Source: Candidatus Gastranaerophilales bacterium (lineage in GTDB: Bacteria > Cyanobacteriota > Vampirovibrionia > Gastranaerophilales > Gastranaerophilaceae). From it: DNA of 64,000 nucleotides. The stretch is taken from assembly GCA_944323695.1 (NCBI GenBank), contig CALUTI010000001.1:124001-188000 (forward strand), given 5' to 3'. How positions within the stretch are numbered: the first letter of the stretch is position 1; each line of letters begins with the position of its first letter. Shown here piece after piece: positions 2,577 through 64,000 of the stretch. Both the position numbers and the translations under genes were made by a program. Below the pieces are notes generated by a model, which did not search any database, was not told the DNA's origin, and saw only the letters and a program-made list of their open reading frames with translations.

Positions 2577-3638
2577 ATGGCAGATGAAGATAAACAGTTT
2601 GATGCCACTCCCCGAAAACTGGAGCAGGCAAGAAAAGAAGGTCAGGTCGTAAAATCCAAAGACTTTTCGACCGCTATCTCACTGTTGATTCTTTTCTCGG
2701 CAATAGTAGGACTTGCGCCTTTTATCTGGAACCAGATTGTTCAATTATATACACTTTTATATGAGCAAATTCCAAACGGACATCTGTCAAACATAGGTAT
2801 GACATATATTCTTACCGTAACCCTAAAATCTGCGGTTTTAATTATCGGCCCGATACTTTTTCTTGCATGGTTTGTTGCGATAATGGCTGATTTTATTCAG
2901 GTAGGACCGCTGGTTGCAACAGCGCCTCTGGTTCCGAAGCTTGATAAACTTAACCCGACAAAGTATTTTAAAAATATAATGTCTATAAAAACATTATTTG
3001 AACTATTCAAAAACATTCTTAAAGTTGTAATTTTGGGCTACATTGGCTGGAGTGTCTATATGTCACACATTGAAAATATTTTAATGCTTGCGGCAATAGA
3101 TAACAATTTTGCGGTAATGATTGAGTTCGGAAAATTAATAACAGAATTCATTTTCAAAGCATGCATTGCCTTCCTGGTAATTTCAGCTGCCGATTACGGG
3201 GTTACAAAATGGAAATTTCTTAAAGATCAGAAAATGTCCTTTAAAGAGATTAAAGATGAATATAAAAACACGGAAGGCGACCCAAATGTAAAAGCCGCAT
3301 TAAGGCAAAGACGTATGCAAATGCTTCAGCAGGGCATGATGGATGCGGTACCGGAAGCGGATTTTGTTGTGACAAACCCGACACACATTGCCTGCGCTTT
3401 AAAATACAATGCAGAAGAAATGTCTTCACCAATGCTTATTGCAAAGGGAACAGAGCTGATTGCAAAAAAAATAATCAATATTGCAAAAGAACACAATGTT
3501 CCGGTCATAGAAAATGCGCCGGTTGCAAGGGCTTTATTTAAAATGGTCGAGCTAAACCACATGATTCCGCCCGAATTGTACAAAGCAATTGCCGAAATTC
3601 TGCTTTTTGTTTATAATATGAAAAAATCCACCAAATAA
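2577..3638 (+). CDS. flhB: Flagellar/type III export switch protein FlhB
   Basis: A 353-aa protein with four hydrophobic segments in residues 30-210 and a cytoplasmic C-terminal domain. The autocleavage motif NPTH is at residues 267-270, and the N-terminus has the usual ATPRKLEQARKEGQV form. FlhB sits in the export gate and switches substrate specificity between hook and filament proteins. The injectisome homologue SctU is built the same way. The flagellar-type sigma factor directly downstream favours FlhB. No other flagellar gene is in the window. Confidence 0.92.
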   Translation: MADEDKQFDATPRKLEQARKEGQVVKSKDFSTAISLLILFSAIVGLAPFIWNQIVQLYTLLYEQIPNGHLSNIGMTYILTVTLKSAVLIIGPILFLAWFVAIMADFIQVGPLVATAPLVPKLDKLNPTKYFKNIMSIKTLFELFKNILKVVILGYIGWSVYMSHIENILMLAAIDNNFAVMIEFGKLITEFIFKACIAFLVISAADYGVTKWKFLKDQKMSFKEIKDEYKNTEGDPNVKAALRQRRMQMLQQGMMDAVPEADFVVTNPTHIACALKYNAEEMSSPMLIAKGTELIAKKIINIAKEHNVPVIENAPVARALFKMVELNHMIPPELYKAIAEILLFVYNMKKSTK

Positions 3639-3682: not shown

Positions 3683-4345
3683 ATGGTTATGCAAGATAAA
3701 AATAAGTTACAAGAATATATAGAAATCGTCCAAAAAGTAGCGAGGGTTGAGCACAGAAGGATTCCTTCGCACATGGTCGAGTACGAAGAATTGCTTTCTA
3801 TAGGGATAATTGCCGTTCAGGTTTTGATTAAAAATAAGACTCCGGAACAGTTAGAAAAATATAATGCCGCATATATCGCAACTGCAGTCCGCTGGGCAAT
3901 CAGGAACGAATTAAGGATTCGCTATAAATGGTATGCAATGAAGCATAAAGCTGAAGGTGAATATGAAGAAGAGGAAGCAGTAGAAGGAATGGATATGCAG
4001 CATGCAAAAGTCCGCGAAGCCGTATACGAAACAATTCTTTCAATCGACGGACTGGCAGCAGCCGCAAGTGACAACGATTCACCGTTTGATTTTGTAAAAG
4101 ATCCTCATGCACTTCCTGATGAAAATGCAGAGATTACGGAAATGGGAAGAATGATTAGAGAAGCAATCTCTAAACTTCCGCCGAAGGAAAGAACCGTTGT
4201 TGAATACAGATTCTACAGAAACATGCAGGTAAAAGATATCGCAAAACAGGTTGGACTTTCATCTTCAAGAGTTACGCGTATCGTTCAGGCGTCACTGAAT
4301 ACCGTCCGTGAATACCTTAATTCAAAAGAACAATACGGATTTTAG
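3683..4345 (+). CDS. Sigma-70 family factor, probably flagellar (sigma-28/FliA-like)
   Basis: A 220-aa sigma factor. Region 2 lies at about residues 25-95 (YEELLSIGIIAV, then AAYIATAVRWAIRNELR) and region 4 at about 155-212 (KLPPKERTVVEYRFYRNMQV followed by an HTH). No region 1.1 is present. Its size and position after flhB suggest the flagellar class, but region 3 is poorly conserved, so the assignment is an inference. No SD is seen; a TATAAT at 3668-3673 lies 9 nt before the ATG, giving a very short leader. A second in-frame ATG lies at 3689. The end overlaps the convergent nucleotidase gene by 4 bp. Confidence 0.85.
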   Translation: MVMQDKNKLQEYIEIVQKVARVEHRRIPSHMVEYEELLSIGIIAVQVLIKNKTPEQLEKYNAAYIATAVRWAIRNELRIRYKWYAMKHKAEGEYEEEEAVEGMDMQHAKVREAVYETILSIDGLAAAASDNDSPFDFVKDPHALPDENAEITEMGRMIREAISKLPPKERTVVEYRFYRNMQVKDIAKQVGLSSSRVTRIVQASLNTVREYLNSKEQYGF

Positions 4346-5844
4346 TTTGATTTAACTATATTAATTCTTTTGTCATCAACAATGTCAACCGGTCCGTCTT
4401 GTTTCTTGATATAGTCACAGGCAAGTTTATCTTTGTCAAAATTATAGACAGCTTCTGCTTCATGTTTTTTATTCAGCATTGAAAATCCGTCTCCGCCTGT
4501 TGCGTAAAAATCATCCATTGCAACTCTTAAAATCTTATTCGGATTTGGATTATTAATATCAATAGGGGTTTCTTTGCCGTTATCATCAACATAATCAAGC
4601 TTTAACAACTCACCTTTATCATTCATAGTATATTTAAGTCCGGACACCATAACAATTCCCGGCTTGTTATCAGGGTGTACAAAAGAACGTCCGCCGAGTT
4701 TTATGGCTTCAACAAGTTCTTTTTCATTTATTTTTGCGACAACAAGATTATTTTTGAACGGGGTTATTTCTGAAACTTTTCTTGTATCGACCTTTCCTGT
4801 TTCAAAATTTCCGCGGATATTTGCAGCATTCAATAATGCAACATCAACACCCAGCTCTTTTCTCATAGCATCCACCAGAAAATTTCCGTGCGGATTGTTT
4901 TCAATAAGCCTGTTTGCCGGCGCCGGCGGAGCAGAATTAATTTCTCCCACATGTTCAGGTTTGCCGATAATTTGTTCAACTGCGAATTTTGCAGGTAATG
5001 TACGATTGAATAAAGCCGTCGGTATAACGTTATTTTGTACAGATTTAATGACACCGTTTTCGTCAAAATCAACATTTAAGACGCCGAAATATTCACCGTC
5101 TTTGCCCGCTTGAGTAATAACAACAGGTTCATTATCGAGGTTATAAAATAAATTTTTACCTTCTTGAACATCTCTAATCAAATCATGCGAATGCCCGCCT
5201 AAAATAACATCGATTCCTCTGGTCTGCTGTGCTATTTGAATATCATTAGTATAGCCGCTATGAGAAAGGAGGAATATTTTATTTACGCCTTGAGCTTTCA
5301 ATTTATCAACTTCTTTTTGCAAATTAGCGATTGTAGTCGGCAAATCATCAACAGTCAAATCACCTTTTGAAACACCATCTTTCAATCTTTTAAACATATC
5401 GGAAGGGCCAATGCCGACGATACCGTATTTATTACCGTTATGTACCTCTATAGCGGAGTTTACCATAACATCTTTCAGCGCACTTGTATCCTTTGTATGA
5501 ACATTTATGGCACCAAGTTCCTGATATTTTGCACTTTTAGCATTTTCCGCATGGACAGAAGGCATAACATCAAATTCGTGGTTGCCGTTCTGGCGTTTGG
5601 TAATTCCAATCATATCAAGCATTTTGCTGACTGCTCTGCTCAATACAGGATCTTCACCAAGACCGTCATCACCGGAGGAAAGTTTCAACTTGTCCGCAGA
5701 GGTTTCAAAACTGTCAAACATTTGAGATGCTGTATACATACGCTCCAAATTAGGAAGCTTTGCATGGAAATCGTTCATGTGTAAAATACTTACACTTGCT
5801 GGTTTATTATTATTCGGTTGTGATGGTTGAACCGGTTGTATCAT
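4342..5844 (-). CDS. UshA/5'-nucleotidase family metallophosphoesterase, no signal peptide
   Basis: A 500-aa protein with both domains of the family. The N-terminal metallophosphatase (about residues 18-260) has HMNDFHAKL, SSGDDGLGED, GNHEFD and GGHSHD. The C-terminal substrate domain (about 295-460) has NAANIRGNF and the stacking segment FYATGGDGFSML. Such enzymes hydrolyse nucleotides, UDP-sugars or cyclic nucleotides, usually in the periplasm. The N-terminus here is a polar linker (QPVQPSQPNNNKP) and not a signal peptide. Only 1 bp separates it from the upstream cysteine peptidase, so the two should be co-translated. Confidence 0.9.
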   Translation of the reverse strand: MIQPVQPSQPNNNKPASVSILHMNDFHAKLPNLERMYTASQMFDSFETSADKLKLSSGDDGLGEDPVLSRAVSKMLDMIGITKRQNGNHEFDVMPSVHAENAKSAKYQELGAINVHTKDTSALKDVMVNSAIEVHNGNKYGIVGIGPSDMFKRLKDGVSKGDLTVDDLPTTIANLQKEVDKLKAQGVNKIFLLSHSGYTNDIQIAQQTRGIDVILGGHSHDLIRDVQEGKNLFYNLDNEPVVITQAGKDGEYFGVLNVDFDENGVIKSVQNNVIPTALFNRTLPAKFAVEQIIGKPEHVGEINSAPPAPANRLIENNPHGNFLVDAMRKELGVDVALLNAANIRGNFETGKVDTRKVSEITPFKNNLVVAKINEKELVEAIKLGGRSFVHPDNKPGIVMVSGLKYTMNDKGELLKLDYVDDNGKETPIDINNPNPNKILRVAMDDFYATGGDGFSMLNKKHEAEAVYNFDKDKLACDYIKKQDGPVDIVDDKRINIVKSN

Positions 5845-5845
5845 T

Positions 5846-7222
5846 TTATGCCGCCTTATTTTTCATGTCTTTATATATATTTAAACCTTCTACCCAATTA
5901 GGAGTAACAGTTAAGTCATCCGCAACAATACTTTCAGGTAAAGCTGCATGGTGAACTTTTGGGAGAAGATAATCTTCACTGTATTCAACAGGTTTTGTCT
6001 GATTATCATCCGTATCATTGCAAATAAAGGTTAATTTACCCTCAGGACTGCGTTTATAGCCGATAATAGTAATTTCATGCCCGTTAATTATAATATTATT
6101 TTGATCTACCTGAGTATAGCCGATTATTACATTTTCACCCATATCAAGTGCTGACAAAAGATGCCTTTTCATTGTGTCAAAATCTGTTTCGTAGCCGACA
6201 AGTCTAGCATTTTCATCAACAGTTTGATAAGTAACGGAAAGCTTACTTTTATCTTCGACAACAGATTCAGTAAAAGTTTTTTCAAATTCAATCAAGCCTT
6301 TGTCGTTCTGGTTAAATTTACCGAGACGTCTGTCGGTTAATGTATTATAAGACTGCTGTGAACCTACCTGCATAAATGTAGACTGCATCAAAACATCCAG
6401 AGGGGAGCGTTCCAAAGGATCTTTGTTAGTTGTTTGAATTTGAGCTCGGATGATTGCATTTTTATCCGGTGCAAAAGTTAAAACCGCGCTGTCAAAATTG
6501 TCAGCCTCAAACGGGATTTCAAATGCATTCAAAAGCCAGATAGCATCAAGCGCATTATCCGCAAGGTTGCGCAGTTTTATTTCTTTTTGAACCGACATTG
6601 AAGGTGATGACAAGCCTTCCGCAAAACGTGCGAATTCAGCCGGCATTTTTTCTGCAAGGTTAAACTCAATACTTGCTGCAACACAAGTTCCGGAATGTTC
6701 AACGTCAATATCCTGCCCTTCCTTAAAACGTTTCACAAGATTTGTTTCACCATCAGTATTTGCAGCCAAAGCCCTTTGCCTGTATGATTGAGGAATATCG
6801 CCAAACTGCTGGGTAATAACAAACGGATAAGAAATTGTTGCGATTGTATCTTTTAATATGCCTTCCTGGCTCAAACCTTCAGCACGCGGAGTAGTCGCCA
6901 TTTTATAAAGATTATCTAATACAGTGGAATGGTCATTTGATTCGCTGTTTAAAAGAATTCCGCTTTTCAAAAGCAATTCAAGCTGTTTTTTGGTATTTTT
7001 GTCTACCATTTTTAAAAGCTCTGTGTATTTTTGCTTTTCTTCAGAAGACGCAAGAGTTGTACGTTTATTTAATACTCTGTTAGAAGAATTAAACGGAAGA
7101 GAACTTATAGGATTAGAAACAGTTGAAGCAGAAAAAGATGTTGCATTCTTTGCATTATTAAGCTTAACATTTGCAACTGTGCTATAATTATATTGTTGAA
7201 TATTATTAACTGAATCTACCAT
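5846..7222 (-). CDS. Papain-like cysteine peptidase candidate, no signal peptide
   Basis: A 458-aa protein of a family I cannot name. Residues 1-60 are Ser/Asn/Thr-rich and look disordered. Cys180 lies in HSGTCVAAS at a helix start, His382 in NGHEITIIGY and Asn402/Asp403 in ICNDTDDN. That Cys-His-Asn order and spacing match a papain-like fold (transglutaminase or C39-like enzymes are alternatives). The start follows tggagtagga. There is no signal peptide or membrane segment. It is the first gene of a pair with the nucleotidase. The catalytic assignment is an inference from motif order. Confidence 0.65.
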   Translation of the reverse strand: MVDSVNNIQQYNYSTVANVKLNNAKNATSFSASTVSNPISSLPFNSSNRVLNKRTTLASSEEKQKYTELLKMVDKNTKKQLELLLKSGILLNSESNDHSTVLDNLYKMATTPRAEGLSQEGILKDTIATISYPFVITQQFGDIPQSYRQRALAANTDGETNLVKRFKEGQDIDVEHSGTCVAASIEFNLAEKMPAEFARFAEGLSSPSMSVQKEIKLRNLADNALDAIWLLNAFEIPFEADNFDSAVLTFAPDKNAIIRAQIQTTNKDPLERSPLDVLMQSTFMQVGSQQSYNTLTDRRLGKFNQNDKGLIEFEKTFTESVVEDKSKLSVTYQTVDENARLVGYETDFDTMKRHLLSALDMGENVIIGYTQVDQNNIIINGHEITIIGYKRSPEGKLTFICNDTDDNQTKPVEYSEDYLLPKVHHAALPESIVADDLTVTPNWVEGLNIYKDMKNKAA

Positions 7223-7312: not shown

Positions 7313-8320
7313 TTGCTAAAGATAAAACCGCTTACAAAAGAACAAATATTAATATCAATAGACAGACTAACAAGATTCAAAAATCCTGAGACTAAATATC
7401 TTAGAGTGTTTAAGGATATTATTACAAACAATCTTACAAGCCCGAAATACAAAAAATCCCAGCTTGATATTATGGATTACTATGAAATAAAGAATATAGC
7501 GGAAGAAATTATAAATTTTTCACTTGAACAGCTGGGTTTTCAGTTAGAAGATGATTATTTGATTAACCAAAGACTTTTGGAGTATGAAAAATCAATATAC
7601 AACATAGATAAAAATACCGAAAATTTATTGAAAAACAGAATAAATTATAAGGCATGCCTGAAACTTATTGATGATAACAGTCCTTTCAATTTAAAATGGC
7701 TGAAAAATCTTGCAGAGTCAAAAGATTTAGTAAAAGACAGAAAAGCATTCGGACTAAAATTCCCGCTTGAAAAAATTGTGATTTCCGAAGGCATAACGGA
7801 AGAAACACTTCTCCCTGAATTTGCGAGGATTTACGGCTATGATTTTGATAAAAACGGAGTTTATATAATATCAGCAGGCGGCAAAAATCAGGTGGTAAAA
7901 CTTTTTTATAAACTGTCAGAGGAGTTAAAAATACCGATTTTTGTTTTGCTTGATAATGATGCACAGGAAAATTACAAAGAAATACAGCCCAGACTAAGAG
8001 ATTTTGACAAGGTGCATGTTCTTAAATGCGGAGAATTTGAAGACGCGCTGCCTGTTGAATTAATCAAAAGAACACTGTCTTACGGACTAAAAAACATATC
8101 CATGATAGAGCTTGAGGCGGTAAATCAGGATATGCGCATGGTAAAAATATTAGAAGAAATATTCAAACACCGCGGAATGCATGAATTTAAAAAGTCAGAA
8201 TTTGCTTTAATGGTTAAAGAAAACCTCAAAGACGAGAAAGATATTTCGTCCGAAATTGCAGATATAATCAAGGAATTAGAAAAAACTTCATTGAACTCAA
8301 AAGTTATGGTTGACAATTAA
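7313..8320 (+). CDS. Stand-alone TOPRIM-domain protein related to OLD-family nucleases
   Basis: A 335-aa protein. The second half carries a TOPRIM core: Glu159 in VISEGITEETLLP and a DxD pair at Asp214/Asp216 in FVLLDNDAQ, the form seen in the nuclease half of OLD (overcoming lysogenization defect) proteins. The usual N-terminal ABC-type ATPase is absent; residues 1-150 are helical and contain no Walker motif. The start is TTG, with gaggg 4 nt upstream, because ATG in that region runs into a stop. It is divergent from the peptidase gene. The promoter of tRNA-Glu overlaps its 3' end. Nuclease activity is an inference. Confidence 0.72.
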   Translation: MLKIKPLTKEQILISIDRLTRFKNPETKYLRVFKDIITNNLTSPKYKKSQLDIMDYYEIKNIAEEIINFSLEQLGFQLEDDYLINQRLLEYEKSIYNIDKNTENLLKNRINYKACLKLIDDNSPFNLKWLKNLAESKDLVKDRKAFGLKFPLEKIVISEGITEETLLPEFARIYGYDFDKNGVYIISAGGKNQVVKLFYKLSEELKIPIFVLLDNDAQENYKEIQPRLRDFDKVHVLKCGEFEDALPVELIKRTLSYGLKNISMIELEAVNQDMRMVKILEEIFKHRGMHEFKKSEFALMVKENLKDEKDISSEIADIIKELEKTSLNSKVMVDN

Positions 8321-8762: not shown

Positions 8763-10121
8763 ATGATACCCGCAATTAATGCAAGCAAAATATATTCAAC
8801 ATTAGGAAATAACAGTTCACTTGTCCCGTTAGCGGTAAAAGATGTCGCAAACAGCTTAGGACTAACAACGGGTTCATACATTGTAGGAGACAAGTTAGAA
8901 GGCAAAGACAGATTTTTAGATGAATTCGGTACACAGGCAATTTGGCTTTTCGGATTACCCGTATTTAAAAAAATGACCGATTTAACTTTATACAAAGCTC
9001 TCAAAATCGACCCGAAAGTCGACGTAAGACTTCTGGATAATCCTGAAATTTTAAATAAAGCTATTGAAATAGAAAAAGATGCAAAAATTAAAAAAAGCCT
9101 TGAAAACTTAAAACTTAATCCCAAATTTTCAAAATCGCTTGCACTGACAAAATTCGGGATAGCAACTGCATTAACGATTACATCATACACTCTGCTTACA
9201 AAATACAGACACAAGCAAACCAAAGAAGCTGCTAAAAAAGAAATTCTGGCAGAACACGCAAAGTTACAAAAAAAACAAACCAAATTTAACAATACAAGAA
9301 CATCCTTCGGTGAATTTATTAAAAACGCCGAAGATAACGACGAAAAACAACAAAATAATTCAAATAAAAAAGTCTCATTTACAGGTAATGGAACACTTGT
9401 TTCAAAACTTCAGGATTTCATGTTTGATCCTGTTAAAAATCTTATGATAGTTGACGGCTCAATAACAGCAGAAAGACTGTCCCAATCAAGAAACGGACAG
9501 GAATTTATAGGCTATGCAATTAAAGAAGGCGCGACTTGGGGCTTTATGTATTTTGCAAGCAAACCTATCCAAAAATTCTTGGAGAAACAAGCTGTTGCAA
9601 AACACAACAAATCAATTGATTTGGATGCAAGAGTAATTGAAAGTGAAGAACTCAAAAATGCCTTTAAAAATAAAAATATAGTTGAAGAAAGCCTTAAAAA
9701 TTTCCCGAAAAATGCAAAAGACGTTGAGATTTTTGAATATTTACACAAAAATCCTGACGATTTCATTGTAAAAATGGCTAAAAAATGCGACGAAATTCCG
9801 ACACTTCCGAAATCAAATTTAATAGATAACAGAAAATTTATTGATTTTGGAAGCTATGAAAAGAAAACCGGCGTCAAAGGTGTCTATGCAAAAATCGAAA
9901 ATCTTTTAAAACAATACAACGATTCCGGTGAAACTTTAGACGCATTTTTAGGTAAAGTAAAAAATCTGAAAAGAAAATCCGTACTTAAAAACCTCGGCGC
10001 ATGTATCGCAGCCTTAGGCGTTGCAGTACCGGCTATAATGATAGCTGTTAGATATTTAAGCGGCAACAAAGATTTTCAGGTAAAAGAAGATTTGGAAAAA
10101 GAACTTGCACTAGACGCTTAA
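8763..10121 (+). CDS. Uncharacterised membrane protein (lineage-specific family)
   Basis: A 452-aa protein of no family I recognise. Hydrophobic segments are seen around residues 65-80, 135-155 and near the C-terminus (ACIAALGVAVPAIMIAVRYL). A Lys-rich coiled stretch fills about 150-205, ending in KKVSFTGNG. The segment LDEFGTQAIWLFGLPVFKKM near residue 58 looks conserved in character. It is similar in general build (multi-pass, Lys/Asn-rich soluble inserts) to the proteins at 19828 and 62234. A good SD (aagga) precedes the ATG. The end overlaps the convergent flavoprotein gene by 12 bp. Confidence 0.7.
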   Translation: MIPAINASKIYSTLGNNSSLVPLAVKDVANSLGLTTGSYIVGDKLEGKDRFLDEFGTQAIWLFGLPVFKKMTDLTLYKALKIDPKVDVRLLDNPEILNKAIEIEKDAKIKKSLENLKLNPKFSKSLALTKFGIATALTITSYTLLTKYRHKQTKEAAKKEILAEHAKLQKKQTKFNNTRTSFGEFIKNAEDNDEKQQNNSNKKVSFTGNGTLVSKLQDFMFDPVKNLMIVDGSITAERLSQSRNGQEFIGYAIKEGATWGFMYFASKPIQKFLEKQAVAKHNKSIDLDARVIESEELKNAFKNKNIVEESLKNFPKNAKDVEIFEYLHKNPDDFIVKMAKKCDEIPTLPKSNLIDNRKFIDFGSYEKKTGVKGVYAKIENLLKQYNDSGETLDAFLGKVKNLKRKSVLKNLGACIAALGVAVPAIMIAVRYLSGNKDFQVKEDLEKELALDA

Positions 10122-13135: not shown

Positions 13136-14170
13136 ATGGGTATGGCAGCATCACAGGCTAGATTTTTAGGCCTTACAGCAAGAAAGACAAACGTAGAATA
13201 TGAAGGACAGCAGGTTAACCAACAGAGAACCACACTGTCTAATCAATCAGCTAACTACTATAATCAGTTGCTTGGTATGACTGTTCCTGTGCCTCCTTCT
13301 ACAGCAGATTACACAAAAACCGTTTATACATTCGAAGACGGTAACTTATCTAACTCAATTACCTCTTTGATTGCGCAAGCAAACGGAGAATACTTAGTAA
13401 GTTATGTGTCTTCTTGGACAAACGACTTTGCACCGGTTTCAGCAGGTTCAGCAATCATTACAAAAGATAATGCCGGTAATCATTATGTAGGCTCAACAGA
13501 ATTAAGAGTACTAGGTGAAGATATACAAGCTGACGGCACATATACCGGCGATGATGAATATCTTAATTCTTTGTCACAAGAACAACGTAAAAATTTATTG
13601 GAAGAAGAAAAACAATATATAAAAATGTTGAATGACAAGTACTGCGGCGGTACAGATGAAGACTGGTACGTAAGATATGTACTTAATACATCAACTGAAA
13701 CCTGGACACCAATGTTCTATAGAAAAGATCAGGTTGACGACGCAATATATTCTGATGAAGGAACTTCTCAATCTAATATTAATGCCTATACTATTGGTTC
13801 TGCACAAGAAACTGAAGAAATCAAAGGCGTTACTGCAAGATTGGAAAAAGATACTACTGGTCGTTATACAAGCATTACACTGTATTCTGACACAGATCAT
13901 CCTGTAACTTATGCTTTAACCACTAATACCTTGACAGATCAGGATGCTTATGATGACGCGATGAATCAGTATGAATATGATAAATATCAATATGATCAAT
14001 CAATTCAAGAAATCAACGCTAAGATTGAAATTATTCAAGCTCAAGATAAAAACTTAGAATTACGTTTGAAACAACTTGATACTGAACAGGATGCAATCCA
14101 GACAGAAATGGACGCTGTTCAAAAAGTTATCGAAAAGAATACAGAATCTACATTCAAAACATTCGGTTAA
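13136..14170 (+). CDS. Uncharacterised protein with axial-protein-like architecture
   Basis: A 344-aa protein, not assigned to a family. The N-terminal 50 residues (MGMAASQARFLGLTARKTN onward, Gln/Asn-rich) and the C-terminal 65 (from YDQSIQEINAKIEI to the end) are predicted helices with coiled-coil character; the middle is Thr/Ser/Tyr/Asp-rich and beta-like, with one Cys. Conserved terminal helices around a variable core are typical of flagellar axial proteins and other type III export substrates. There is no signal peptide. It stands alone between a strong promoter and a strong terminator, which suggests high expression. The export idea is an inference. Confidence 0.7.
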   Translation: MGMAASQARFLGLTARKTNVEYEGQQVNQQRTTLSNQSANYYNQLLGMTVPVPPSTADYTKTVYTFEDGNLSNSITSLIAQANGEYLVSYVSSWTNDFAPVSAGSAIITKDNAGNHYVGSTELRVLGEDIQADGTYTGDDEYLNSLSQEQRKNLLEEEKQYIKMLNDKYCGGTDEDWYVRYVLNTSTETWTPMFYRKDQVDDAIYSDEGTSQSNINAYTIGSAQETEEIKGVTARLEKDTTGRYTSITLYSDTDHPVTYALTTNTLTDQDAYDDAMNQYEYDKYQYDQSIQEINAKIEIIQAQDKNLELRLKQLDTEQDAIQTEMDAVQKVIEKNTESTFKTFG

Positions 14171-19827: not shown

Positions 19828-21519
19828 CTATGATTTTGCAGTATTTATTTCCGCCTTAACATTCTGGGCATGTTTTAAATCTTCTTGCTGTTTTGTAAAT
19901 TGTTTTCTGGATTTATCGACTTTTGAACCAATAATATTCATTGCCATACCGGACAAACCGCTTATTACCATTGCTTTAATACCTGCGACCAAACCGACAG
20001 TTAAAGCAATTGACGTTGCCACACTGCCTATAATCGGAATACCGTAAACAAGCATTGCGGAGATTCTTTCATCACGGTTGTCTGCAGCAGTAAGCCCTAA
20101 ACCTACACCGCCTATCGAACCTAATAAAGAAAGCACATCCGTCGGACCGGATCCGAGAGTTAAATCTCTCAGTTTATCATAGAATAAATCATTTTCCGTT
20201 TTTATTGCTTTATCCAGTGAAGCAAGTGTTTTGTTTGTTTTTCCGCGTAATTTTACATATTCTTCCGTTGGCAAAAGACGTTTATAAATAGTAAGGATTT
20301 CCTGTATTTCACCTTTTGAACTTTTCCCAAGAATATTTTCAATTTCATCAATATAAGCAGATACCTGCGTTACTGTAGATTTATTATAATCAAATTTATC
20401 GGAAGATTTGGCAAGTCTTTCTGATATTGATTTTAAACCTGTCAAAATTTCTTCATTAACCTTTTCACGCAATTGTTTTTCGTTTGGTCCGGAAAGCTTT
20501 TTATAAGTAACAAGTTGAGAACGTAATTTTCTTAACAAATCATAAGATTTTTTGTCGCTTGGATCAATGAATGAGGCGATATTATCAAGAGTCTTAGATG
20601 AAGCATTATAATTATCCAAAATACTGTGAGTTATTTTATTTCTGGATAAATCCACCCCGCGCATTATGGCGATTTTATCCGCTGCTATAGCATCTTCAGC
20701 GATAAATGTTGTAAGAACCTTATTAGTGCGCTGCTTGTCGGATTTATCAACAAGGACATCCCAAACTTTCTCGTCAAGACCTGCTGTGGCATTTTTCATT
20801 TTTTTGTATCTGCCCATACGTGCGGTTTGCCCAAACCCTTCTTTTAATCCTAATTTAACCTTATTTTGTCTCAAAACAAGATCATCTATCCATTCGGAAG
20901 CTTTTTTAGTTACATTATTAATTGTAACTAATTTGTCAGGATTGCTCTGTAAAATTTCCTTATTTACATCAGAGTAAGTGCTAAAAAGTTTTGCAAATTT
21001 TTTATCTGAAGATTTATACGCATTCACAACAGAGCGTCTTGCCAAACGTTCAAATACTGATGTTATTTTAAGGTGAATTTTTTTAGTAAAGTTGTTTTTA
21101 TGCATAAGTTTTGTAAATAACAAGTCCTTAAATGAGCCTATGTTATTTACACCCTTAGATTTTTCCGCCCAAACAGTTACGTTTTTGAAAAGTTTGTTAT
21201 AAAAAGAGGTAACAGGACCGCTCTTTCCGGCTTCTTTACGGCTGTTGACATTATTTTCAAGTCTCTGGCCCCACTTTTGCAGCCATTTGTAAGTGTTCTT
21301 TGGCAAGCCTTTTACCACAGCAAAAATACCTAATGCTGCGGCTAATGCACTTGTAACTATTATAAGACCTGTTCTTTTACGTTTTTTTTCTTTGCTTTTT
21401 TCGCTCGTCTCAAATATATCCTGTGCCGTTTTTGTTGTAATGTAATAATTACTTTGACCTTTGGCAAAAGGATTTTGAGTTTGAATATTTATAAAACTAT
21501 TTTGAACACTGCTAACCAT
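19828..21519 (-). CDS. Uncharacterised membrane protein (lineage-specific)
   Basis: A 563-aa protein of no recognised family. Residues 1-45 are polar and Ser/Gln/Asn-rich, a hydrophobic segment lies at about 51-68 (LIIVTSALAAALGIFAVVKG), a long Lys-rich helical region fills 70-450, and a C-terminal hydrophobic region runs from about 455 to 535 (LLGSIGGVGLGLTAADN, then IPIIGSVATSIALTVGLVAG). The end is again charged and helical. The Ser/Asn head resembles that of the peptidase at 7222 (MVSSVQNSF versus MVDSVNNIQ), without clear homology. The stop lies 26 bp before dgt's start. Confidence 0.7.
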   Translation of the reverse strand: MVSSVQNSFINIQTQNPFAKGQSNYYITTKTAQDIFETSEKSKEKKRKRTGLIIVTSALAAALGIFAVVKGLPKNTYKWLQKWGQRLENNVNSRKEAGKSGPVTSFYNKLFKNVTVWAEKSKGVNNIGSFKDLLFTKLMHKNNFTKKIHLKITSVFERLARRSVVNAYKSSDKKFAKLFSTYSDVNKEILQSNPDKLVTINNVTKKASEWIDDLVLRQNKVKLGLKEGFGQTARMGRYKKMKNATAGLDEKVWDVLVDKSDKQRTNKVLTTFIAEDAIAADKIAIMRGVDLSRNKITHSILDNYNASSKTLDNIASFIDPSDKKSYDLLRKLRSQLVTYKKLSGPNEKQLREKVNEEILTGLKSISERLAKSSDKFDYNKSTVTQVSAYIDEIENILGKSSKGEIQEILTIYKRLLPTEEYVKLRGKTNKTLASLDKAIKTENDLFYDKLRDLTLGSGPTDVLSLLGSIGGVGLGLTAADNRDERISAMLVYGIPIIGSVATSIALTVGLVAGIKAMVISGLSGMAMNIIGSKVDKSRKQFTKQQEDLKHAQNVKAEINTAKS

Positions 21520-62201: not shown

Positions 62202-62236
62202 AAAAAAAGAGGTTCAAATGAACCTCTTTTTTTTTA
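62202..62236. terminator. Bidirectional terminator between DUF1858 and the membrane-protein gene
   Basis: aaaaaaagaggttca / tgaacctcttttttt around a tiny loop. It covers the region between the two convergent genes and overlaps the stop of the second. Confidence 0.92.
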
Positions 62237-64000
62237 ATCTTTATTTAAAAAGCCTGCCATAGTCGGCTTATTTGTAACAACCCTCATTGAATCGGGGATT
62301 TGAGTCTGTTTAGCCATATTTTGCATTGACTGTTCTTTTTGTTCTGCAATACGTTGTTTTGTCATTTTTTCGCAGTGTTTTGAAATCCATATCATCAATG
62401 CCGGAACAAGGAATATTGTTGAGGCAAAGCCAAACAAGCTGTTATATGTTTTTGCTTTTTTAACAAGAGTATTGCTTTCATCGGCAAGCTTTTTGATAAT
62501 AGTTTTATATGCATCGGTATCTTTTGCATTATCAAAAGCTTTTATGATATCATTGAGCTTCATATTTTTATCCGGCGTTTTACCTAGGATTGTAGTTGCT
62601 GCAGACTTAATATCTTTATCAATATTAAGCATTTTACCAACGTTGCCGCCATTATTATCTACAAAACGGAACATATCATTTATACCGTCTTTGTATGAAG
62701 CAACATTACTGTAGTTTGCTCTGATTCTTGTATCATCAAGAACCTGAACTCCGCCTGACGGATATACATAATGCCATATTTTCTTGAATATAGATTCATT
62801 ATGGTTTTGCGGCTTAGTATTCAAAGCAAGACCTGAAGTTTTTGCAAATACGTCAGAGAAGCCTCTTGTAAGAAGTTTCGCCCCAAACAAAATGGATAAG
62901 AAACTTGTAACGTCTCTAAATAAAATCTCTTTTCTGTCTGTACTGCTTTGCGCGTGCTTTAATCTCGGAGGCAAACAAAAACCGAATAACAATGTCAGCA
63001 TAGCAGGCATTGACATAGTTGCACCGTCAAATTCAAATCCGTCTGAAATGCCTTTAAGTGCCTTATTATTTGTAACCGTTTTACCGACTTTTGCCATTGC
63101 GCCGCCCAATCCTGTGAATGAAGGATCAGCCTTTACAACATTGTCAGCTTTTTCTTCCTTATTGCCAGAATTATCCTTTGAGAAAGTCGGATTTGCTGTT
63201 TTATTTACATTCTGCTCCTGTACACCAAGACCGTCCAAACCGGGGTCACGACCTTTTGTTACGTGGTTGTAAAGTTTTGGAATTATTGTATAGAAACCTA
63301 CAACAGCCAGCCACATACTTATATTTGACAAGAATCTTGTACCTGAACGGCGTTTACTCAAAGTTTCAACAAATTTTTCAACAGATTCCGGCTGAATATT
63401 TTTAACATCTTTGAATTTTTTATTTACAGTTTTTATTGCATCATTAGCATAATCATTCATGTGACCGACAACAGATTTAAATGATGATGCAATCTTCTTG
63501 CCATTTTGTCCTGTATATTCTGCAACGACCTTGTCACTATCCGCGCCGAGATATTTTTTACGAATATCAACAAACTCTTTCAACAAGTCATGCTGCAAGT
63601 CTTGAGCGGAACCTTCCACACGTTTTCCTGTCAAATGTTTCCAGAAGCCTTTTTTCGGTGCCTTTTCAGCATTTATCAACTTATCAGCAAATGTTTTGGC
63701 CGTAGCATCAAGTTCATCGCCCTGCAAAAGATTATTTGTAGAAGTTGCCAACATGTTTTTGAATACATTTTCATAAAAACCATGTTTTGCAACAGCAGCA
63801 TCCCCAAGGGCTGCAACATTATCTTTTGCATAATTCTTAAATGTTTCACCTAGTCCGTTTATAAAGTCAACAGGAACATTATTGGCGCTGCCGGAAATCC
63901 TTTTAATACCTGCCATCAAAAAAGCCGGAATTATAAATGCACTCGGGCCGCTCAATATTTCACGCGTACCTTCTTTTTTAGCGAAATCCCAGTTCAATTG
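62234..64000 (-). CDS. Large uncharacterised membrane protein, N-terminus beyond the window
   Basis: At least 587 aa; the frame is open to the window end and the first in-window start is only a TTG, so the true start lies outside. Hydrophobic segments are seen near residues 23-33, 225-245, 330-350 and near the end (FASTIFLVPALMIWISKH). Long Lys/Asp-rich helical stretches lie between. A low-complexity linker with NKEEKADNVVKAD is near 285. It is similar in build to the proteins at 8763 and 19828. Function unknown. Confidence 0.72.
   Translation of the reverse strand, partial: QLNWDFAKKEGTREILSGPSAFIIPAFLMAGIKRISGSANNVPVDFINGLGETFKNYAKDNVAALGDAAVAKHGFYENVFKNMLATSTNNLLQGDELDATAKTFADKLINAEKAPKKGFWKHLTGKRVEGSAQDLQHDLLKEFVDIRKKYLGADSDKVVAEYTGQNGKKIASSFKSVVGHMNDYANDAIKTVNKKFKDVKNIQPESVEKFVETLSKRRSGTRFLSNISMWLAVVGFYTIIPKLYNHVTKGRDPGLDGLGVQEQNVNKTANPTFSKDNSGNKEEKADNVVKADPSFTGLGGAMAKVGKTVTNNKALKGISDGFEFDGATMSMPAMLTLLFGFCLPPRLKHAQSSTDRKEILFRDVTSFLSILFGAKLLTRGFSDVFAKTSGLALNTKPQNHNESIFKKIWHYVYPSGGVQVLDDTRIRANYSNVASYKDGINDMFRFVDNNGGNVGKMLNIDKDIKSAATTILGKTPDKNMKLNDIIKAFDNAKDTDAYKTIIKKLADESNTLVKKAKTYNSLFGFASTIFLVPALMIWISKHCEKMTKQRIAEQKEQSMQNMAKQTQIPDSMRVVTNKPTMAGFLNKD

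What the first reader, a model, noticed from the sequence alone, without database searches (positions are those of the whole stretch)
4342..7222. Peptidase-nucleotidase pair, both without signal peptides
UshA-type nucleotidases are almost always periplasmic. Here both the nucleotidase and its partner lack signal sequences, start with flexible Ser/Gln/Asn/Pro heads and are 1 bp apart. Either both act in the cytosol, or both leave by a non-Sec path, for example the FlhB-type apparatus encoded nearby. Joint delivery of a protease and a nucleotidase to another cell would be new.
Basis: inference. Interest (0 to 1): 0.65.

Follow-up and report, generated by a model that had tools for sequence, protein, structure and literature searches.

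The report
Signal-less enzyme pair beside export gene
Gut bacteria related to cyanobacteria carry a nucleotide-cutting enzyme and a protein-cutting enzyme that lack the usual export tags and may instead leave the cell through a flagellum-like channel that has lost its tail.

Summary
NT (4342-5844, UshA-type 5'-nucleotidase) and PEP (5846-7222, papain-like cysteine protease by fold and conserved Q-C-H-D) lie 1 bp apart; in-frame stops just upstream rule out missed signal peptides. 53 of 54 distinct PEP homologues lack a hydrophobic head (the exception has a doubtful start). On the NT tree, signal-less and signal-bearing proteins separate by one change (99/93); a family without FlhA keeps Sec-type NTs, and signal-less NTs were sampled only from families with PEP and FlhA. 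The pair is adjacent in 16/16 genus genomes but 5/20 in the rest of the family and 0/23 beyond, so each gene, not the pair, is the conserved unit. NT sits beside flhB-sigma in 21/30 loci. The genome has no flagellin yet keeps a divergent FliE/F/H/P, FlhA/B, FlgB/C/F/G set. Flagellated relatives carry a second FlhA of this type besides the flagellar one (own FlhA 78% identical to such a copy, 38% to the flagellar), so it is an independent apparatus, not decay. Most likely both enzymes are exported by it; no secretion data exist, and a cytosolic location remains open. Evidence that the polar heads are a common signal is suggestive only.

The parts
4342..5844 (-). NT: UshA/CD73-type 5'-nucleotidase (PF00149 + PF02872), no signal peptide
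5791..5844 (-). NT head (residues 1-18), Q/P/N-rich, variable between species
5846..7222 (-). PEP: papain-like cysteine protease, no signal peptide
7079..7222 (-). PEP head (residues 1-48), predicted disordered, starts MVDSVNNIQQYNY
6683..6685 (-). PEP Cys180, invariant in 38 homologues
6077..6079 (-). PEP His382, invariant in 38 homologues
6014..6016 (-). PEP Asp403, invariant in 38 homologues
2577..3638 (+). FlhB/SctU-type export switch protein with NPTH; below both the flagellar and the injectisome equivalog cut-offs
3683..4345 (+). FliA/WhiG-like sigma factor, convergent with NT, 4-base overlap of the 3' ends
7313..8320 (+). OLD-like TOPRIM protein divergent from PEP; context only

Best explanation
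NT and PEP are soluble hydrolases exported from the cytosol, without Sec, by a flagellum-derived type III export apparatus that keeps the inner ring, export gate and rod but has no filament. The polar, disordered heads act as the export signal. The apparatus is a second machine beside the flagellum in flagellated relatives and the only one found in this genome. Steps: (1) no Sec signal, shown; (2) intact catalytic residues and folds, shown by sequence and model; (3) a conserved second apparatus, shown by gene content and identity; (4) NT and PEP as its substrates, inferred; (5) destination (gut lumen, cell surface or another cell), unknown.
For: Starts cannot be extended. Signal-less and signal-bearing NTs separate by one change (99/93; 0 of 500 shuffles). 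Eight of eight sampled NTs from family f8 have Sec signals, and f8 has no FlhA (0 of 35 genomes) and no PEP match. Eight of eight sampled NTs from PEP+ genomes of f9, f14 and f15 are signal-less, and five genomes (G038, G040, G045, G047, G096) have one sampled NT with a signal and one without. PEP+ implies FlhA+ in 17 of 17 out-of-order genomes, and FlhA- implies PEP- in 38 of 38. NT is beside flhB-sigma in 21 of 30 loci. Heads rank 4th and 8th of 299; PEP residues 1-48 are disordered. Apparatus: FliE, FliF, FliH, FlhA, FliP, FlgB/C/F/G and FlhB present; flagellin absent. FlhA is 78% identical to the second FlhA of a flagellated relative and 38% to its flagellar FlhA. 29 of 30 flagellin-less genomes keep this FlhA type.
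Against: No secretion data. FlhA+ families f10, f11 and f12 lack PEP and gave almost no NT match. The distribution follows phylogeny, so co-occurrence is not independent. G019 has a signal-less NT although neither PEP nor a full second FlhA was found in it (75% complete). The head score was built after the heads were seen. A broad head motif was not enriched (19 vs 15 expected); a narrower one was (12/47 vs 13/173, p=0.0015), after several patterns. One PEP+ relative (G021) showed no excess of polar heads (1/55). Some head-bearing proteins look like membrane proteins. An outer-membrane exit was not identified: the one secretin gene found may belong to type IV pili. FliI, FliQ and FliR were not searched for in the own genome.
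Confidence: 0.5

Rival explanations
1. Both are cytosolic enzymes. NT recycles nucleotides and PEP is a housekeeping or regulatory papain-like protease; the heads are functionless disordered tails.
For: No Sec signal; no secretion evidence; outside the genus the two are mostly unlinked. G021 has no excess of polar heads.
Against: The closest solved relatives are 5'-nucleotidases known as extracytoplasmic (location recalled). A signal-less clade cleanly separated from Sec-type NTs and sampled only from families with PEP and FlhA is not predicted by this view. NT-flhB linkage.
Confidence: 0.32
2. The heads are targeting signals, but for another destination: a protein compartment, an outer-membrane or surface route, or vesicles, unrelated to the FlhA/FlhB apparatus.
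For: Heads of similar style occur on unrelated proteins, including an M16-type peptidase, an F-x-[AG] patch is enriched in them, and some head-bearing proteins look membrane-bound by eye.
Against: No shell or compartment gene was looked for or noticed. The sampled genomes without FlhA show no excess of such heads (2/134, against 33/330 in PEP+ genomes), which points to the apparatus, though composition may confound this.
Confidence: 0.13
3. The remaining flagellar genes are a decaying flagellum (the published reading for gut Gastranaerophilales), so there is no working exporter.
For: Flagellin is absent in the own genome and in 14 of the 15 other genus genomes. Di Rienzi 2013 and Soo 2014 read incomplete sets as loss (passages).
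Against: Flagellated relatives carry both FlhA types; G045 has the two clusters converging on one contig. All 26 genomes with the high-scoring flagellar FlhA have flagellin, while the second type is in 54 of 59 genomes, flagellin or not. 78% FlhA identity between families is not decay.
Confidence: 0.05

Closest known systems
UshA / CD73 family 5'-nucleotidases (PF00149 + PF02872)
   Same: Two-domain architecture, metal ligands and NHE motif conserved
   Different: No Sec signal; scores far below the UshA equivalog cut-off (71 vs 600 bits)
Papain-like cysteine proteases (staphopain, SpeB, C39, bleomycin hydrolase)
   Same: Q-C-H-D order and fold, Z about 11
   Different: No sequence family match; a disordered head and no signal peptide
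Filament-less flagellar basal bodies of Buchnera (PMC8109811, passages read)
   Same: FliE, FliF, FlgB/C/F/G, FlhA, FlhB, FliP kept without flagellin; export function proposed by its authors
   Different: Many Buchnera lineages keep part of a hook, and there the set remains from the only flagellum; here it is a second system coexisting with a flagellar one in relatives, and candidate substrates exist
Non-flagellar T3SS as defined by Abby and Rocha 2012, including the secretin-less Myxococcales type (PMC3459982, passages read)
   Same: Export core without a filament
   Different: Keeps FliE, FlgB and FlgC, which that definition excludes; FlhA fails both the flagellar and the SctV cut-offs

Membership tests
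UshA/5'-nucleotidase family | Metallophos plus 5_nucleotid_C domains | tested here: met
   both above cut-off
UshA/5'-nucleotidase family | Metal ligands and catalytic His-Asp (positions recalled from UshA) | tested here: met
   kept in 47-50 of 50 signal-less homologues (3 rows gapped at D25/H27)
UshA (NCBIfam equivalog) | Score above curated cut-off | tested here: not met
   71.2 vs 600
UshA-type periplasmic enzymes | Sec signal peptide | tested here: not met
Papain-like cysteine proteases | Conserved Q, C, H, D/N in that order | tested here: met
   invariant in 38
Papain-like cysteine proteases | Fold | tested here: met
   staphopain C Z 11.4, 153 residues, 3.0 A; Foldseek alone weak, best E 2.3e-3
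Papain-like cysteine proteases | Proteolytic activity | not testable with these tools
   needs an enzyme assay
Type III export substrate | No Sec signal, disordered polar N-terminus | tested here: met
   (disorder modelled for PEP only)
Type III export substrate | Export depends on the apparatus | not testable with these tools
   needs a secretion assay
Bacterial flagellum | Flagellin | tested here: not met
   none in own genome (97.8% complete)
Bacterial flagellum | FlhA above the flagellar equivalog cut-off | tested here: not met
   696.6 vs 772.1
Bacterial flagellum | Hook protein FlgE | tested here: inconclusive
   only two short PF00460 rod proteins in own genome; FlgE itself was not searched separately
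Non-flagellar T3SS (Abby and Rocha) | No flgB, flgC, fliE | tested here: not met
   FliE, FlgB and FlgC present
Non-flagellar T3SS (Abby and Rocha) | Dedicated secretin | tested here: inconclusive
   one secretin in the genome, on another contig

The most novel reading that the evidence does not exclude
Gastranaerophilales and related families carry a third kind of type III system: a rod-bearing, filament-less export machine, separate from their flagellum, with its own FlhA, FlhB and FliP and a family of enzyme substrates (nucleotidases, a papain-like protease, possibly an M16 peptidase and others) marked by polar disordered heads. It may act on host or neighbouring cells in the gut.
Probability: 0.35. 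Interest if true: 0.82.

Novelty: new variant of a known kind. Interest (0 to 1): 0.6.

Why it matters
Gut Melainabacteria were described as having complete or incomplete flagella. If the second set is an exporter, a common gut lineage has a protein secretion system that genome surveys read as a broken flagellum, and NT and PEP give concrete proteins to test. It would also be another example of how a flagellum turns into a secretion machine.

Tried and rejected
Misannotated starts: rejected, the frames open 4-6 codons before the ATG. Pair as conserved unit: rejected outside the genus. Broad head motif [STNA]F[KGTRSQ][AGSN]: 19 observed vs 15 expected, not enriched. The narrower F[KQTGRSE][AG] was enriched (12/47 vs 13/173, p=0.0015), but five patterns, three thresholds and two windows were tried, and one control (Y instead of F) reached p=0.045 and 0.014. 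Head excess across nine genomes: PEP+ 33/330, FlhA+PEP- 5/84, f8 2/134; p=0.0008 for PEP+ vs f8, 0.017 without G059. G059 hits include doubtful starts, G021 is negative, and base composition differs between genomes. Upstream of PEP the genus shares a block and ribosome site, but I saw no FliA-type promoter by eye. PDB sequence search with the PEP profile gave only chance-level hits. The 16 'SP' labels in the tree were set by hand from the best start; L020, L127 and L128 were left out of that tree, and L129 stayed in as a very long branch. Literature searches listed no paper whose title or shown abstract describes type III secretion or secreted effectors of this group; papers were read only as passages.

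Full report
Observation. NT (4342-5844) and PEP (5846-7222) are minus-strand ORFs one base apart. NT has both UshA-family domains, its closest solved relatives are 5'-nucleotidases, and its metal and catalytic residues are kept. PEP has no family match, but 38 homologues share invariant Q138, C180, H382 and D403/D405/D406, and the model (pLDDT 84) aligns with staphopain, SpeB and C39-type proteases at Z 10-11; Foldseek alone was weak (best E 2.3e-3). The reading frames open only 18 and 12 bases upstream of the starts, so no signal peptide was missed.

Distribution. NT homologues occur in 59 of 59 near relatives including the own genome, PEP in 54 of 59. Record titles that name an organism mostly say Candidatus Gastranaerophilales or Melainabacteria, with a few such as Muribaculaceae and Fusobacterium sp. 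CAG:439. PEP occurs in 159 of 240 class genomes. NT and PEP are adjacent in 16 of 16 genus genomes, 5 of 20 others in the family, and 0 of 23 outside it (contig ends may hide some). NT is next to the sigma and flhB genes in 21 of 30 loci, and a divergent TOPRIM gene is near PEP in 29 of 30 PEP loci (none seen for L056).

Signals. One of 54 distinct complete PEP homologues has a hydrophobic head, with a doubtful start; for NT it is 13 of 66 with one mechanical start each, or 16 when all starts are considered. These 16 form one side of a single branch (support 99/93) in a 67-row tree: eight come from family f8, which has no FlhA (0 of 35 genomes), and eight are ordinary UshA-type copies from f3, f4, f6, f9 and f14. 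Five genomes (G038, G040, G045, G047, G096) have one sampled copy of each kind. Among 80 of the 96 out-of-order class genomes, all 17 with PEP have FlhA and all 38 without FlhA lack PEP, but 25 FlhA+ genomes (f10, f11, f12 and one f14) also lack PEP. G019 has a signal-less NT without PEP or a full second FlhA in its 75%-complete assembly. Phylogeny is not controlled for.

Apparatus. The own genome encodes FlhB (window), FlhA, FliE, FliF, FliH and a protein in the place of FliG on C12, FlgB, FlgC and two FlgF/G-like proteins on C5 and FliP on C6, but no flagellin. Its FlhA scores 696.6 against a flagellar cut-off of 772.1 and 581.1 against a SctV cut-off of 692.25; FlhB is 343.3 vs 349.25 and 320.1 vs 358. 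A flagellated relative, G045, has a flagellar fliP-fliR-flhB-flhA run and, converging on it, a second set: FlgF/G-like, FlgB, FlgC, transglycosylase, FliE, FliF, FliG-place protein, FliH, FlhA (FliP, the two FlhA and the transglycosylase were scanned, FlhB, the others identified by similarity to the own genes or by eye; FliR, FliE and FliH by eye). Own FlhA is 77.7% identical to the second copy and 38.1% to the flagellar one. The second FlhA type (about 665-735 bits, near full length) is in 54 of 59 relatives; the five without are G058 and four genomes 75-88% complete. The flagellar type (over 850 bits) is in 26, all with flagellin. Of 30 flagellin-less genomes 29 keep the second type. FliP shows the same two classes: a lower-scoring one in all 58 FliP+ genomes and a longer, higher-scoring one only in flagellin+ genomes. 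This argues against the published reading of simple flagellar loss (Di Rienzi 2013, Soo 2014; passages).

Heads. PEP and NT rank 4th and 8th of 299 called ORFs for polar, acid-poor heads; the score was made after seeing them. Others near the top include an M16-type peptidase. A narrow F-x-[AG] patch is enriched in polar heads (12/47 vs 13/173); a broader one is not enriched over internal segments. Polar heads exceed the 2.5% expected in three of four PEP+ genomes and, less, in two FlhA+PEP- genomes (3/46, 2/38), and not in three f8 genomes (2/134).

Conclusion. Absence of Sec signals, intact enzymes, a second conserved apparatus and flhB linkage make export by that apparatus the best single reading (0.5). 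Export is inferred, not shown; cytosolic location (0.32) is the main rival. Under the published definition the apparatus is not a non-flagellar T3SS, and without flagellin it is not a working flagellum; it most resembles Buchnera's filament-less basal bodies but is not a remnant of the only flagellum.

Noticed in passing
L066:9626-11122 (-), G000:C9: A 498-aa protein with only the cytoplasmic domain of FlhA (PF00771 positions 320-654) and a different N-terminal part; partial FHIPEP matches of this kind occur in most genomes of the order. Could be a soluble docking platform.
   Followed up: partly
window 13136-14170 and L065:16-1134: Paralogous proteins (59% identity over 110 aa) sharing an N-terminal block MGMAASQAR(F/Y)LGLTARKTNVEYEGQQVNQ; no Pfam family; look like rod/hook-type helices by eye.
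   Followed up: partly
L143:15253-18051 (+): 932-aa M16-type peptidase with a polar head and no signal peptide.
   Followed up: no
L066:7590-9593 (-): GH77 glucanotransferase-type protein with a head MRILGVNSVVNFQRRP.
   Followed up: no
L127-L129: A third metallophosphoesterase family in the genus with heads such as MITKIQGYNPAFKAAQ and no signal peptide.
   Followed up: no
window 8763-10121, 19828-21519, 62234-63997; L066:4932-6572: Large proteins without a clear Pfam or NCBIfam match where scanned, some with hydrophobic stretches and SF(T/G)(G/N) patches.
   Followed up: no
L020 (G006:C3): Two NT domains in tandem in one open frame of about 1020 aa.
   Followed up: no
L148:11746-12324 (-): A lytic transglycosylase inside the second apparatus cluster of G045; no counterpart was seen in the own-genome clusters read.
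   Followed up: partly
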